NCBI GenBank assembly: GCA_016839365.1
Contig: JAEOUH010000053.1
Location: forward strand, 1 to 38,221
DNA: 38,221 nt
Direction of reading: 5' to 3'
Source of the DNA: Candidatus Hermodarchaeota archaeon
Lineage (GTDB): Archaea > Asgardarchaeota > Hermodarchaeia > Hermodarchaeales > Hermodarchaeaceae
Part shown: piece after piece, positions 1-8,943 of the stretch
How the letters are laid out: each line of letters opens with the position of its first letter
Position numbering within the stretch: the first letter of the stretch is position 1
Program-made: the position numbers and the translations under genes
The notes under the pieces: generated by a model
Seen by the model: only the letters and a program-made list of their open reading frames with translations
The model's database searches: none
Told to the model about the DNA's origin: nothing

Positions 1-1295
1 ACCATTTCGATGGAGTTTTCGATGTGTTGGTTGATTTTGCCGCCTTTGATGTGGCGTTGGGCGAGGGTTTGGACGCCTTTGTCCATGCCGGGGTTGTTGC
101 CGACGGTGGAGACGATGAGGTTGACGTTGGTGAGGATGCCGTTGGGGTTGGCGGTGTAGTCGTGGATGAGGAGGCCGCGGGGAGCTTCGAGGACGCCGAC
201 GCCGCGTCCGCCTTTGATTTGGAAGGTGGTCATGATGTCGGGGCTGGTGATGGCGGGGTCGGTGAGGAGTTCTTTGGTGCGTTCGATGGCGTAGAGGGTT
301 TCGATCATGCGGGCGTAGTGGTAGAGGAAGGTGTGGTCGGGGGTTTTGCCAAATTGGGCACGGAATGTGTCGAGTTCGGCGTTGGCTTCGGGGGTGGAAA
401 TCTTGTCAGCGACGTTGATGCGGGCGAGGGGTCCGACCCGGTAGATGCCTTTGGGCCAGCCGTGGGGGAGGTAGAAGGGGAATTTGAGGTAGCTGTAGTC
501 TTCGACGTGTTCGCCGATGTATTTGAGGTAGTCTTTGATAGGGAATTCGGCAAGGCGTTTACCATCGGAATTGACGATGCGGACCGGGCCATCGTAGAAT
601 TCGAGGTTGCCGTTGTTGACGAGGCCGACGTAGCTGGTTTTGAGTTCGTCGAGAACTTCGACTTGGCCGAGGAGAGGTTGGACGACAGGGAAGAGTTCGT
701 GGAAGAGGTTGTAGGCTTCCTGGTTCCATTTGAGCATCTCGTCACGTTCCTCTTCGCTGAGGGGTTTGGAGATGCCGCCGGCTTGAGAGGTGACCGGGTG
801 GATAGATCGGCCACCGGTGACTTTGATGCCGTCTTGGCCGATTTGGCGGAGACGGATGACCTTCTTTACGAGGTCAGGGTTTTGTTTGAGAAGGGTGACC
901 ACATGGCGGGTTGAGGGATCGCCATCTGGAATAAGGAGGTCAGGGGCGGCCAAATAGAAGAAGTGCAATACGTGGGAGTGGAGCATTTGATTCTGGTGCA
1001 TGAGCTCACGGAGAAGTTTGGCTGTTCGTGGTGGATCGACCGCGTAAAGTGCGTCAGCAGCTTTGGAGGACGTTAGATGATGGCTGACTGGGCAGATACC
1101 GCACATCCGGGTGGCGATACGGTTGGCTTCTTCGACGGGGCGGTTTTGCATGAACTTTTCATAGCCACGGACATCCATGACGGAAAAGTGGGCTTTGGCG
1201 ACGTTGCCTTTTTCATCTAAATTAATAGTAATTGCTCCGTGTCCTTCAACGCGGGAAACGGGAGCGATTGTGAGGGTTTTCTTTTTTGAGCTCAT
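1..1295 (-). CDS. mvhA: F420-non-reducing [NiFe] hydrogenase large subunit (MvhA), 3' end cut off
   Basis: Large subunit of a group 3c-type [NiFe] hydrogenase, which splits H2 and passes electrons through MvhG and MvhD to HdrA. About 431 codons are present; the stop lies beyond the window edge. The N-terminus shows the RVEGH motif (residues 15-19) and the proximal nickel-ligand motif RMCGICPVSH, with Cys65 and Cys68. The distal C-terminal Cys pair (DPCxxC) would lie outside the window, so the active site cannot be checked in full. The ATG start at 1295 overlaps the mvhG stop by four bases (ATGA), pointing to translational coupling. It is the last visible gene of the hdr-kor-mvh operon. Family assignment is firm; the 3c subgroup rests on the neighbouring mvhG, mvhD and hdrA. 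Confidence 0.93.
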   Translation of the reverse strand, partial: MSSKKKTLTIAPVSRVEGHGAITINLDEKGNVAKAHFSVMDVRGYEKFMQNRPVEEANRIATRMCGICPVSHHLTSSKAADALYAVDPPRTAKLLRELMHQNQMLHSHVLHFFYLAAPDLLIPDGDPSTRHVVTLLKQNPDLVKKVIRLRQIGQDGIKVTGGRSIHPVTSQAGGISKPLSEEERDEMLKWNQEAYNLFHELFPVVQPLLGQVEVLDELKTSYVGLVNNGNLEFYDGPVRIVNSDGKRLAEFPIKDYLKYIGEHVEDYSYLKFPFYLPHGWPKGIYRVGPLARINVADKISTPEANAELDTFRAQFGKTPDHTFLYHYARMIETLYAIERTKELLTDPAITSPDIMTTFQIKGGRGVGVLEAPRGLLIHDYTANPNGILTNVNLIVSTVGNNPGMDKGVQTLAQRHIKGGKINQHIENSIEM

Positions 1296-2233
1296 GTTGT
1301 TGCCTTCATTGGTTTGGTTTTGACCGTGGGAGTATGGACGGCTTTCTTGAAGGTGGAATGGGCAAAGGTGAACCGGAGATAAGTGCCAACGAGGTCAGGG
1401 ACTTCTTTGACAATTTTCTCAGGAGCAGGGGCTTTGCTGGGATCCTGAACCACAATGCTGCCCAGAGCACCAATCATTTTGGCGGCTTGATCTTCAACAT
1501 TCTCGGTGGGTCCAAAACAGCCTCTACAGGGAGACAGGGCAGTGGGGCAGCGGGCTTCGCAGCCAGCTTGAGTGCTGGGTCCAAGGCATTGATAGCCTTG
1601 TTCGAGGAAACAGCGTTCGGTGAAGACTATGTCAGTGCCCCAGCGTTTGAATTCGGTGACGGCTTTTTCTTCTTTGATGAGGGGGCATTGATCACAGACA
1701 GTTTTAGGTTCGAGGTGGAATTCTCGACCTTCGAGTAGACAGGTAACTAGTTCCGCAATGAGTTTGGGTGGGGGTGGACACCCGGGGAGGACATAGTCGA
1801 CTTTAACAAAGTCGTCGACCGGGTGCAGCTCTTCGAGCATTGGGGGTACGATTTTAGGGGGGATGATTTTCTTGGGGTTGACGGTAGACTTGGTGTTGAT
1901 GTAGACTTCTTCCATGATTTCGTCCTTGGTATGCAGGTTCGCTAGTCCCGGGACTCCGCCAAAGGCGGAGCAGGCTCCGAAGGCGACTAGGATTTGTGAA
2001 CGTTCTCTGAGCATTTTGAGGCGTTCGAGGTGTTCTTCGTTACGGACGCCGCCGGAGACGAAGCCGACAGTGACACCTTCTTTGGGTGGTTCACGGTGAT
2101 CCATGAGGACTTGGATATATTTGAGGTCGATGGCGTCGAGAACGTCTGCGAGCGCCAGGTGTAGGTCGAGGATGGCGATTTCGCAGCCGGAACAGATGCT
2201 GAGGGTTTCCACTGCTAGACTGGGTTTGGTCAT
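1292..2233 (-). CDS. mvhG: F420-non-reducing hydrogenase small subunit (MvhG)
   Basis: Iron-sulfur small subunit of the [NiFe] hydrogenase, carrying electrons from the NiFe site to MvhD. The 313-residue protein begins with the CSGCE motif (Cys14, Cys17), the proximal cluster site of small subunits. It continues with FGACSAFGGVPG and PGCPPPP motifs and a Cys-rich second half (CDQCPL, CLGP, CEARCPT, CRGCFG) that fits further [4Fe-4S] clusters. There is no twin-arginine signal, so the enzyme should be cytoplasmic, as Mvh enzymes are. The ATG start overlaps the mvhD stop by four bases and the gene's stop overlaps mvhA by four, as in an operon. Length is normal for the family. Confidence 0.93.
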   Translation of the reverse strand: MTKPSLAVETLSICSGCEIAILDLHLALADVLDAIDLKYIQVLMDHREPPKEGVTVGFVSGGVRNEEHLERLKMLRERSQILVAFGACSAFGGVPGLANLHTKDEIMEEVYINTKSTVNPKKIIPPKIVPPMLEELHPVDDFVKVDYVLPGCPPPPKLIAELVTCLLEGREFHLEPKTVCDQCPLIKEEKAVTEFKRWGTDIVFTERCFLEQGYQCLGPSTQAGCEARCPTALSPCRGCFGPTENVEDQAAKMIGALGSIVVQDPSKAPAPEKIVKEVPDLVGTYLRFTFAHSTFKKAVHTPTVKTKPMKATT

Positions 2234-7506: not shown

Positions 7507-8396
7507 ACGCTCATCCCGATTTTTTCTAGGAATGGTGCAACGGATATGTAGTGCTTATCTAGTCCCATTTGCTTTGGTGTAAAGCCTTGGGCTAGCCCTA
7601 AGAGTTGAGTATAATACAGGACCGGGATTTGGTAGTCAGTGCCAAAATGCTTGTTTGCTTGCATTTGTCCAAGATCAAATTGTAGGTGACAGAAGTTGCA
7701 GACATTGACCATCGCGTCAATCTTTGCTTGTTTCATCGCTTCGAGTTTTTCTCGGACCATATCCAGTGAGACTTCAAGTTCTGCGGATCGTAATCCACCT
7801 CCGGCACCACAGCACATATCTTTGAGTTTGTAATCGACGATCGTGCCACCGAGGGCTTCAACAAGTTCATCGACAAGGGTGAAATCCTCAACCACGCCCC
7901 ATGGTCGAATGTCACTGGGTTTGAGTAGGTGACAACCGATATGAATGGCAAATCGTGCATCGATGGGGTTCACTACGGTTTCTTCGATAGCTTCTTTACC
8001 GATATCGTTGTAGAGGACCTCCACTAGGTGTTTGGCTGTAATTTTCCCCTGGAATTGATGTCCGGTGCCTTTTAGGATCTTGTTGATGCGTTTAAGGGTC
8101 ACAGGGTCTTTTAGATCATGTACTCCGGCAATGAGAGTTCCATAGCATCCATTACATAAAACAAGGATGTCTAAACCATTCTCTTCAGCGATCGCCAAGT
8201 TTCGTGCAGTGATTGACAGCCAGGTATCCTTATCGAAGGATTTAATGACTCCTGGCGCCGGGCAGCAAGAGGCTCCTTTCATTTCAACAAGTTCAATATC
8301 TAACTTTGGCGCGATGAGGCGAGTGGCGGCTTCTATTTGAGGAAGTCGGTTGGGAATAACGCAGCCCAGGAAGAAACTGTATCTATGTTTTACCAT
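7503..8396 (-). CDS. hdrB: Heterodisulfide reductase subunit B-like protein (HdrB)
   Basis: 297-residue protein with the two Cys-rich CCG domains that bind the noncubane [4Fe-4S] clusters of HdrB, the site of heterodisulfide reduction in methanogens. Visible are YSFFLGC, GASCCPAPG, CNGCYG, IHIGCHLLKPS, MCCGAGGG and NVCNFCHLQFD. The ATG at 8396 has an SD-like GGAGAGC upstream inside hdrC. Its partner hdrC lies just upstream with a 14-base overlap. The window shows no methyl-CoM reductase genes, so the disulfide substrate is unknown; in non-methanogens HdrB-like proteins may use other thiol disulfides. Confidence 0.93.
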   Translation of the reverse strand: MVKHRYSFFLGCVIPNRLPQIEAATRLIAPKLDIELVEMKGASCCPAPGVIKSFDKDTWLSITARNLAIAEENGLDILVLCNGCYGTLIAGVHDLKDPVTLKRINKILKGTGHQFQGKITAKHLVEVLYNDIGKEAIEETVVNPIDARFAIHIGCHLLKPSDIRPWGVVEDFTLVDELVEALGGTIVDYKLKDMCCGAGGGLRSAELEVSLDMVREKLEAMKQAKIDAMVNVCNFCHLQFDLGQMQANKHFGTDYQIPVLYYTQLLGLAQGFTPKQMGLDKHYISVAPFLEKIGMSV

Positions 8397-8943
8397 CCTT
8401 TTTGCTCTCCTTGTAGTTAACTAGTTTATCAAAGCCGGTTTGTTTGATAATGTGTTGAATCTCCTTGACGGCTTTGGGGTATGAATGAACGGTGGGAGGC
8501 AGGGGGTCCAACCCGAGCTCTTCCCGCATTTTGCTCCACTTTGGATCATCGATGGGAACTGCGTGTCCCGTTTCGATGAGTTTATGGGAGACACCTTGGT
8601 GTTCGGGTCGCATATACCCTGCTTGGCAGGAGAGATTTCGGAGATAAAGAATGGCTTCCGTAACATCGATTTTACGTGGGCACCTTTCAGTACAAGTGCC
8701 ACATGTCGAACAGAGCCACAGATTTGGGTCTGATAGGACTTCTTCCCGTAGTCCTAGGAGAGCCTTACGGATTAGTTGACGGGTTCTGTAAGCGGTGCGA
8801 CGCCCCGCGGGACAAGACCCGGTACAGGTTCCACATTGAATACAAGAACGAATACGATCCAGACCTGCCTTTGTCATGTCGTCAGCGAGCTTACCATCTA
8901 TTTTTGACCCATTAATTACCCGGCGATCGATCAACAAGGTCAC
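8383..8943 (-). CDS. hdrC: Heterodisulfide reductase subunit C-like iron-sulfur protein (HdrC)
   Basis: 186-residue protein with two [4Fe-4S] motifs, CIQCGTCTGSCP and CSTCGTCTERCP, separated as in HdrC; it relays electrons from HdrA to HdrB. It is the first gene of the ten-gene operon. The longest frame starts with GTG at 8943; an internal ATG at 8878 (codon 23) just before the first cluster motif is an alternative. No clear SD precedes either, so a leaderless or near-leaderless transcript is possible. A weak TATA-like TTTACAAA lies roughly 30-40 bases upstream on the minus strand, which I could not confirm as a promoter. Confidence 0.91.
   Translation of the reverse strand: MTLLIDRRVINGSKIDGKLADDMTKAGLDRIRSCIQCGTCTGSCPAGRRTAYRTRQLIRKALLGLREEVLSDPNLWLCSTCGTCTERCPRKIDVTEAILYLRNLSCQAGYMRPEHQGVSHKLIETGHAVPIDDPKWSKMREELGLDPLPPTVHSYPKAVKEIQHIIKQTGFDKLVNYKESKKDGKT

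What the first reader, a model, noticed from the sequence alone, without database searches (positions are those of the whole stretch)
1..8943. A 2-oxoacid oxidoreductase set inserted between hdrB and hdrA of an Mvh/Hdr operon
Ten genes in one direction overlap by a few bases at most junctions, in the order hdrC, hdrB, korDABC, hdrA, mvhD, mvhG, mvhA. Overlaps at hdrB-korD and korC-hdrA tie the kor genes to Hdr translation. Known: Mvh-HdrABC bifurcates electrons between ferredoxin and a disulfide, and Kor makes or uses ferredoxin. Inferred: oxoacid oxidation feeds, or is fed by, the bifurcating complex directly, perhaps as one assembly with KorD as bridge, linking H2, ferredoxin and CO2/acyl-CoA metabolism in a non-methanogen.
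Basis: partly seen in the sequence, partly recalled or inferred. Interest (0 to 1): 0.72.

Follow-up and report, generated by a model that had tools for sequence, protein, structure and literature searches.

The report
Hydrogen-driven bifurcating 2-oxoglutarate synthase operon
An uncultured Asgard archaeon packs genes matching a hydrogenase, the electron-splitting enzyme Hdr and a 2-oxoacid:ferredoxin oxidoreductase (Kor) into one ten-gene cluster, and because related archaea keep these genes together in many shuffled orders they likely work as one unit that would use hydrogen to push CO2 into 2-oxoglutarate.

Summary
Observation confirmed: on the minus strand, 8943 down to 3, lie hdrC-hdrB-korDABC-hdrA-mvhD-mvhG-mvhA (mvhA cut by the contig end) in a Hermodarchaeota (Asgard) relative with no detected MCR. 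All 8 genomes of its family carry it (two only as contig-end fragments), while 0 of 42 other oxidoreductase paralogues there lie within 20 kb of an hdrA on the same contig. The link is wider: 75 of 94 close KorA loci in Asgard genomes sit beside hdr/mvh genes, in at least six arrangements with exchangeable modules (Mvh, Flx-like, NfnB-like, SdhBA); so do 16 of 21 inspected loci in the phylum of Bathyarchaeota, but 0 of 20 in the phylum of Methanolobus. My reading: Kor is the low-potential client of HdrA, the role formylmethanofuran dehydrogenase has in methanogens (recalled). I commit to the reductive direction: H2 in, a disulfide (or fumarate in some relatives) as strong acceptor, 2-oxoglutarate out. 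Contact, direction, disulfide and 2-oxoacid are untested. Ten answered searches of an open-licence library found no report of the linkage. New variant of a known kind.

The parts
8383..8943 (-). hdrC (186 aa), two CX2CX2CX3C motifs
   Evidence: TIGR03290 206.9 bits, over the cut-off of 160; motifs
7503..8396 (-). hdrB (297 aa), all ten cysteines of the two CCG-type cluster sites
   Evidence: TIGR03288 395.2 bits, over the cut-off of 345.15; closest solved chain 5odc_B; cysteines
7210..7506 (-). korD, ferredoxin-like delta subunit (98 aa) with two CX2CX2CX3C motifs; candidate bridge to HdrA (inferred)
   Evidence: Pfam Fer4 families; OGOR_delta 72.4 bits, below the cut-off of 125; motifs
6062..7213 (-). 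korA, alpha subunit (383 aa) with YPITP motif
   Evidence: PRK08659 584.9 bits, over the cut-off of 411; closest solved chains 1yd7_A and 8ys5_A
5217..6065 (-). korB, beta subunit (282 aa), TPP site; likely CTG start
   Evidence: Pfam TPP_enzyme_C; closest solved chain 8ys5_C, 2-oxoglutarate ferredoxin oxidoreductase beta; start
4643..5206 (-). korC, gamma subunit (187 aa)
   Evidence: Pfam POR 112 bits; PRK08537 203.4 bits, below the cut-off of 235
2664..4646 (-). hdrA (660 aa from GTG; 656 from ATG 4634), predicted bifurcating flavoprotein
   Evidence: Full-length match to 8rvu_a and 5odc_A; NF040770 970.7 bits, below the cut-off of 1100 of a model that includes a fused MvhD part
2230..2661 (-). 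mvhD (143 aa), adaptor between hydrogenase and HdrA
   Evidence: Pfam FlpD 186.1 bits
1292..2233 (-). mvhG, hydrogenase small subunit (313 aa)
   Evidence: Pfam Oxidored_q6 100 bits
3..1295 (-). mvhA, NiFe hydrogenase large subunit, 431 aa to the contig end (cut)
   Evidence: Pfam NiFeSe_Hases 106.9 bits; first metal-binding motif RMCGICPVSH; second motif only in relatives L031, L036

Best explanation
The ten genes are predicted to encode one flavin-based electron-bifurcating unit in which hydrogen would supply electrons through MvhA, MvhG and MvhD to the HdrA flavin, and Kor would likely be the dedicated low-potential partner of HdrA. Inferred path: H2 is oxidised at the MvhA NiFe site; electrons pass MvhG and MvhD to the HdrA FAD and are split. 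One runs downhill through HdrC to the two non-cubane clusters of HdrB and reduces a disulfide of unknown identity (in genus g1 a Tfr-type thiol:fumarate reductase could make it). The other is pushed uphill through HdrA's ferredoxin clusters and KorD into KorABC, where it drives reductive carboxylation of succinyl-CoA to 2-oxoglutarate. H2 plus a good acceptor would thus pay for a CO2-fixing step, as Mvh-Hdr does for formylmethanofuran dehydrogenase in methanogens (recalled). Shown: gene content, order, cofactor motifs, conserved and repeatedly rearranged linkage, exchanged neighbour modules, no linkage at the 20 loci inspected in the Methanolobus phylum. Inferred: contact or channelling, the KorD bridge, 2-oxoglutarate as the substrate, the reductive direction, the disulfide.
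For: Linkage in 8 of 8 family genomes. In Asgard genomes 41 of 53 non-Thor KorA hits lie in same-strand runs with hdr and/or mvh genes (window included) and 34 of 41 Thor hits have hdrB upstream on the same strand within 2.6 kb. Kor and Mvh genes are interleaved in f14. 16 of 21 inspected loci in the Bathyarchaeota phylum are linked. Controls: 0 of 42 paralogues, 0 of 20 loci in the Methanolobus phylum. Catalytic and cluster motifs kept. Direction: TfrA-like gene in 5 of 8 family genomes, with TfrB-like and fumarase genes beside it in G003; sdhB follows in the same run in 20 relatives' loci.
Against: No contact, activity or transcript data. In most Thor loci read genes on the other strand lie between hdrB and korD. 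Close korABC sets in f7, f11 and f12 and 5 of 21 inspected loci in the Bathyarchaeota phylum are unlinked. TfrA-like gene absent in genus g2 (0 of 3), so it is no general disulfide source; ComA 0 of 8, so CoM-S-S-CoB is doubtful. A second korABC set exists in the genome. KorB, KorC and KorD score below curated cut-offs, so the 2-oxoacid is not fixed. kor-linked HdrAs are not one clade in the best tree.
Confidence: 0.5

Rival explanations
1. The same unit runs the other way: Kor would oxidise 2-oxoglutarate from amino acids, and HdrA would confurcate its low-potential electrons with those of a dithiol to release H2 through Mvh in syntrophic fermentation.
For: The same gene order fits both directions. 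The Hermodarchaeota paper infers peptide use through kor, vor, ior and por (PMC8163825, passages). Confurcation through Hdr has been proposed for other archaea (PMC9012536, passages).
Against: Tfr-like fumarate reductase beside fumarase fits a reductive arc better; with a disulfide at about -140 mV (recalled) H2 would have to be kept very low.
Confidence: 0.25
2. Co-regulation only: Kor and Hdr-Mvh would share a soluble ferredoxin pool and a transcript for balanced dosage, without touching each other.
For: Operons often encode pathway partners that do not bind. In Archaeoglobus fulgidus separate kor and hdr-vhu clusters rise together on one substrate (PMC8359953, passages). In Thor the kor and hdrCB genes are neighbours rather than one operon.
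Against: Genes are interleaved in f14, overlaps are tight, and none of 42 other ferredoxin-linked oxidoreductase paralogues in the family genomes is near an hdrA.
Confidence: 0.2
3. Hitchhiking: kor was inserted by chance and has no functional tie to Hdr.
For: Loki-type operons have hdrC-hdrB-hdrA-mvhD without kor, and Hermod HdrA groups with unlinked Loki-type HdrA in the tree.
Against: 75 of 94 Asgard loci and 16 of 21 inspected loci in the Bathyarchaeota phylum are linked, in different orders.
Confidence: 0.03

Closest known systems
MvhADG-HdrABC of methanogens (PDB 5odc and 8rvu series)
   Same: All six subunits; HdrA matches over its full length; ten HdrB cysteines
   Different: A complete korDABC set lies between hdrB and hdrA; MCR and ComA are not found in the 8 family genomes, so the acceptor is unknown
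KorABCD-type 2-oxoacid:ferredoxin oxidoreductases (PDB 1yd7, 8ys5)
   Same: Four subunits, YPITP, TPP motif, two-cluster KorD
   Different: Genes are embedded in a bifurcating hydrogenase-Hdr operon; free-standing at the 20 loci inspected in the Methanolobus phylum
Hdr-formylmethanofuran dehydrogenase assembly of methanogens (7bkb series; the assembly is recalled, the HdrA chain match is)
   Same: A CO2-fixing, ferredoxin-level enzyme as low-potential partner of Hdr (analogy, inferred)
   Different: Partner is Kor, not Fwd/Fmd; contact not tested
Other HdrABC systems (HdrABC with Fdh or MetFV-MvhD, HdrA2B2C2; listed in PMC5861303, passages)
   Same: HdrA core with exchangeable donor or acceptor modules
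   Different: In the passages seen none has a 2-oxoacid oxidoreductase as partner

Membership tests
MvhADG-HdrABC bifurcating complex | HdrB with ten cysteines for two non-cubane clusters | tested here: met
   Present in the window and in all 16 HdrB proteins aligned; TIGR03288 over cut-off
MvhADG-HdrABC bifurcating complex | HdrA with FAD and Fe-S domains over full length | tested here: met
   phmmer to 8rvu_a over residues 3-654 of 656; by homology, cofactors not assayed
MvhADG-HdrABC bifurcating complex | MvhD, MvhG and MvhA with both NiFe-binding motifs | tested here: inconclusive
   MvhD and MvhG present; first MvhA motif present, second lies beyond the contig end but is present in L031 and L036
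MvhADG-HdrABC bifurcating complex | CoM-S-S-CoB as acceptor (MCR, CoM synthesis) | tested here: not met
   MCR alpha 0 of 8, ComA 0 of 8; genomes 74-86% complete; other CoM routes not searched
MvhADG-HdrABC bifurcating complex | H2-dependent bifurcation activity | not testable with these tools
   Needs enzyme assay
KorABCD 2-oxoglutarate:ferredoxin oxidoreductase | Four subunits with TPP, YPITP and KorD cluster motifs | tested here: met
KorABCD 2-oxoglutarate:ferredoxin oxidoreductase | Specificity for 2-oxoglutarate | tested here: inconclusive
   KorB closest to 8ys5_C; KorA over a general 2-oxoacid model; KorB, KorC, KorD below curated cut-offs
Hdr supercomplex with a CO2-fixing enzyme | Physical contact between Hdr and the CO2-fixing enzyme | not testable with these tools
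   Only single chains can be folded; no structure job was run
Thiol:fumarate reductase (TfrAB) as disulfide source in Hermodarchaeota | TfrA and TfrB over curated cut-offs | tested here: inconclusive
   G003: TfrB 499.9 bits, over 385; TfrA 698.3, below 718. TfrA-like in 5 of 8 genomes, none over the cut-off, 0 of 3 in genus g2

The most novel reading that the evidence does not exclude
In archaea without methanogenesis Kor has taken the place that formylmethanofuran dehydrogenase holds in methanogens: an HdrA-centred modular machine splits electrons from H2 (Mvh), NADH (Flx-like) or NADPH (NfnB-like), sends the strong half through KorD into 2-oxoglutarate synthase and the weak half to a disulfide or directly to fumarate (HdrCB-SdhBA). 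It is a self-contained electron-bifurcating arc of the reductive TCA cycle shared by Asgard archaea and Bathyarchaeia.
Probability: 0.35. Interest if true: 0.87.

Novelty: new variant of a known kind. Interest (0 to 1): 0.7.

Why it matters
What Hdr complexes do in Asgard and other archaea without MCR is open: papers call the acceptor an 'unidentified heterodisulfide' (PMC11291895, passages) or its identity unclear (PMC7886697, passages). A conserved partner that makes or uses low-potential electrons, and in many relatives a fumarate reductase/succinate dehydrogenase pair in the same gene run, turns that question into defined biochemical tests. It also bears on how the archaeal kin of eukaryotes run central carbon metabolism at low energy yield.

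Tried and rejected
HdrA spacer as a signature of Kor coupling. Kor-linked HdrAs (50 of 50) have a long spacer in the second cluster motif of the inserted ferredoxin domain; 5 of 42 HdrAs labelled unlinked have one too, one of them (L204) a divergent neighbour of kor. Control: among HdrA paralogues away from kor in the Hermod genomes, 11 of the 11 that my filter recognised in 21 loci also have a long spacer (the filter missed further paralogues). Rejected as specific.

Independent origins of the kor-HdrA link. The HdrA tree puts kor-linked HdrAs in three groups, with Hermod beside unlinked Loki-type HdrA (98 and 99 SH-aLRT). Rows dropped: near-copies of f17 in the first tree; in the second also ten long-branched or doubtful rows and fifteen loci of near-copies. 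Holding kor-linked HdrAs as one clade is not rejected (p-AU 0.0755). Left open.

CoM-S-S-CoB as acceptor: lowered. Tfr as general disulfide source: lowered. RNA elements: no Rfam match in the window at gathering scores. Prior report of the linkage: (two of them, 26 and 40, returned no paper); of the papers listed I saw passages of 13 and no whole paper; the library holds open-licence papers only. Complex prediction was not possible.
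Full report
Observation. The window is contig C27 of a 2.2 Mb genome, 84% complete. ORF lists, Pfam and NCBIfam confirm hdrC, hdrB, korD, korA, korB, korC, hdrA, mvhD, mvhG, mvhA in this order on the minus strand. mvhA runs off the contig. korB has no ATG, GTG or TTG at the expected place but a CTG at 6065 that overlaps the korA stop; at the same position relatives have TTG (L033), GTG (L032) or ATG (L031, L035, L036), so CTG is the likely start. The closest HdrB sequences in named records belong to Hermodarchaeota (75-87% identity), so the organism is a Hermodarchaeota relative.

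Conservation in the family. The ten-gene order is also seen in L031 and L036 with complete mvhA and in L033 and L035 with mvhA cut by the contig end; L032 shows nine genes, ending inside mvhG. G004 has hdrC-hdrB-korD at a contig end; G006 has korA-korB-korC-hdrA-mvhD with both ends cut. With the window this is 8 of 8 family genomes. Identities to the window run from 57% (KorD) to 97% (MvhD). The hdrB/korD overlap is kept in the six operons read. Control: 42 other oxidoreductase alpha paralogues (one weak fragment left out) and 30 long HdrA places outside the operon in these genomes never come within 20 kb of each other on one contig; contig breaks limit this test.

Conservation in Asgard. In 227 genomes of the phylum, 91 have KorA at E<=1e-125, 94 hits in 16 families. 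Of the 53 hits outside family f3, 41 lie in a same-strand run with hdr and/or mvh genes: f1 6 of 6, f6 1 of 1, f14 2 of 2, f16 1 of 3, f17 21 of 21, f18 1 of 1, f20 1 of 1, f21 2 of 2, f23 1 of 1, f24 5 of 5. The other 12: f7 1, f11 1, f12 6, f16 2 (one, L204, has its hdr-mvh genes divergently adjacent), f13 1, f19 1; f11, f13, f19 and one f12 locus end near kor. Family f3 is Thorarchaeota (same coordinates for G190 and the CP070761.1 locus); there an HdrB match (E<=1e-87) lies upstream of korA on the same strand at 0.5-2.5 kb in 34 of 41 hits. Of the other seven, five have that HdrB on another contig, and in one (L214) an hdrB fragment lies upstream at the contig edge. In Thor loci read the gap holds genes on the other strand, so this is neighbourhood rather than one operon. 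Together 75 of 94 hits, 11 of 16 families.

Arrangements and modules. f1: hdrCB-korDABC-hdrA-mvhDGA. f18, f24 and L164 of f17: korDABC-hdrA-mvhDGA-maturation protease-hdrCB-like-sdhB-sdhA. Most f17: korDABC-mvhD-flxB-flxC-flxA-hdrA-hdrCB-like-sdhB-sdhA. f6 and L162 of f16: NfnB-like fusion-hdrA-mvhD-korDABC. f20: korDABC-hdrA-mvhD-hdrC-hdrB. f14: korDAB-mvhDGA-korC-hdrCB-like-hdrA, with Kor and Mvh genes interleaved. sdhB, in most cases with sdhA, continues the run in 20 loci: 14 of 21 f17, 4 of 5 f24, the f18 locus and one in the Bathyarchaeota phylum; several of the rest stop at contig ends. NCBIfam supports the Flx-like, Sdh/Tfr-like and NfnB-like labels at the level of related families, mostly below curated cut-offs, with no match for the flxB-like protein; the name Flx is recalled. 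The 16 HdrB proteins aligned, five of them from runs with sdhB, all keep the ten cysteines, though the two sdh-linked ones that were scanned score below the HdrB cut-off.

Outside Asgard. In the phylum of a Bathyarchaeota genome (CP070759.1; Thermoproteota in GTDB, recalled) 28 of 398 genomes have KorA at E<=1e-130. I fetched 21 of the 28 loci: 11 have NfnB-like-hdrA-mvhD-kor, 3 have korABC-mvhDGA with no hdrA or korD recognised in the run, 2 have korDABC-hdrA-mvhD-hdrC-like (L251 continues into hdrB-like and sdhBA), 5 are unlinked. Three lower-scoring KorA loci (L230-L232) were also read: two unlinked, one with an hdrA about 2 kb away. In the phylum of a Methanolobus genome 89 of 392 genomes have KorA at E<=1e-110; of 20 loci fetched, mostly from the top of the list, none shows an hdr or mvh gene in the stretch. 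I did not test which of these genomes have Hdr at all. So the linkage is not a general trait of korDABC.

Trees. Hermod HdrB lies near Thor HdrB with weak support. Hermod HdrA lies with Loki-type unlinked HdrA (98, 99), so this operon may combine parts of different history, but one clade of kor-linked HdrA is not rejected (p-AU 0.0755).

Mechanism. From the families: HdrA bifurcates, HdrB reduces disulfides, Mvh oxidises H2, Kor exchanges low-potential electrons. The arrangement suggests that Kor takes or gives HdrA's low-potential electron, with KorD as the natural bridge. I prefer the reductive direction for two reasons. A Tfr-like fumarate reductase, an enzyme that makes a disulfide from two thiols (recalled), is present in 5 of 8 genomes, and in G003 its TfrB-like partner and fumarase lie beside it. 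Many relatives put SdhBA, the fumarate/succinate enzyme, in the Kor gene run: fumarate reduction (+33 mV; PMC5861303, passages) would pay for succinyl-CoA to 2-oxoglutarate (about -500 mV, recalled). Against: genus g2 lacks the TfrA match (0 of 3), ComA is absent (0 of 8), a second korABC set exists, and all electron steps are inferred. The confurcating direction stays a serious rival.

Known and new. HdrABC with Mvh, Fdh or MetFV is known (PMC5861303, passages); ANME Hdr clusters with Fdh and NfnB-like parts (PMC9012536, passages) and Culexarchaeia clusters of a membrane hydrogenase with HdrBC, SdhA and CdhA (PMC9723716, passages) are described. The Hermodarchaeota paper lists hdrABC, mvhADG and kor in separate passages (PMC8163825, passages). 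In Archaeoglobus fulgidus separate kor and hdr-vhu clusters rise together on one substrate (PMC8359953, passages). No paper seen reports kor inside hdr-mvh gene runs; subscription papers and preprints are not covered. I file it as a new variant of the HdrABC bifurcating kind, with Kor as candidate partner.

Noticed in passing
window 6063-6065 (korB start): korB seems to start with CTG overlapping the korA stop, after a GGAGG; relatives have TTG, GTG or ATG at the same place.
   Followed up: yes
L242, L248, L250: korABC followed by mvhDGA with no hdrA or korD recognised in the run: perhaps a direct 2-oxoacid oxidoreductase-hydrogenase pair.
   Followed up: no
L196:5011-7894 and other f17 loci: An Flx-like (sulfhydrogenase beta/gamma-like) set stands in the place of MvhGA between mvhD and hdrA.
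   Followed up: partly
L229:5233-6675; also L161, L162, L235-L238, L240, L241, L244-L247: Fusion of an HdrC-like Fe-S part with an NfnB/GltD-like NAD(P) part ahead of hdrA-mvhD-kor.
   Followed up: partly
L173, L205 (family f14): Interleaved order korDAB-mvhDGA-korC-hdrCB-like-hdrA.
   Followed up: partly
L260:5031-9814 (G003): Fumarase genes converge with TfrA- and TfrB-like genes, a possible disulfide source in genus g1.
   Followed up: partly
L168-L170, L174, L176, L206-L208; L262:7653-10269: korABC sets without a recognised korD are the ones not linked to hdr; one such set is in the window's own genome (L206 ends at korA).
   Followed up: no
L037, L050, L057 and other Thor loci: HdrA matches come in several out-of-order pieces of one region, suggesting duplicated or split HdrA.
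   Followed up: no
window 9111-9791 (+): Divergent 226-aa ORF with no Pfam match beside hdrC; similar-sized divergent ORFs stand there in the relatives.
   Followed up: no
window 11346-14396; 16449-18700; 20318-22510; 25269-26633; 27246-28601; 33296-34588: Rest of the contig is archaeal housekeeping: STT3, both primase subunits, CDC48, SRP54, Pus10, enolase.
   Followed up: no
L063, L086, L097: Record titles look doubtful: two 'Lokiarchaeota' records with Thor-type hdrB-kor loci and a 'Bathyarchaeota' contig whose HdrB groups with Loki; perhaps mislabelled or mixed bins.
   Followed up: no
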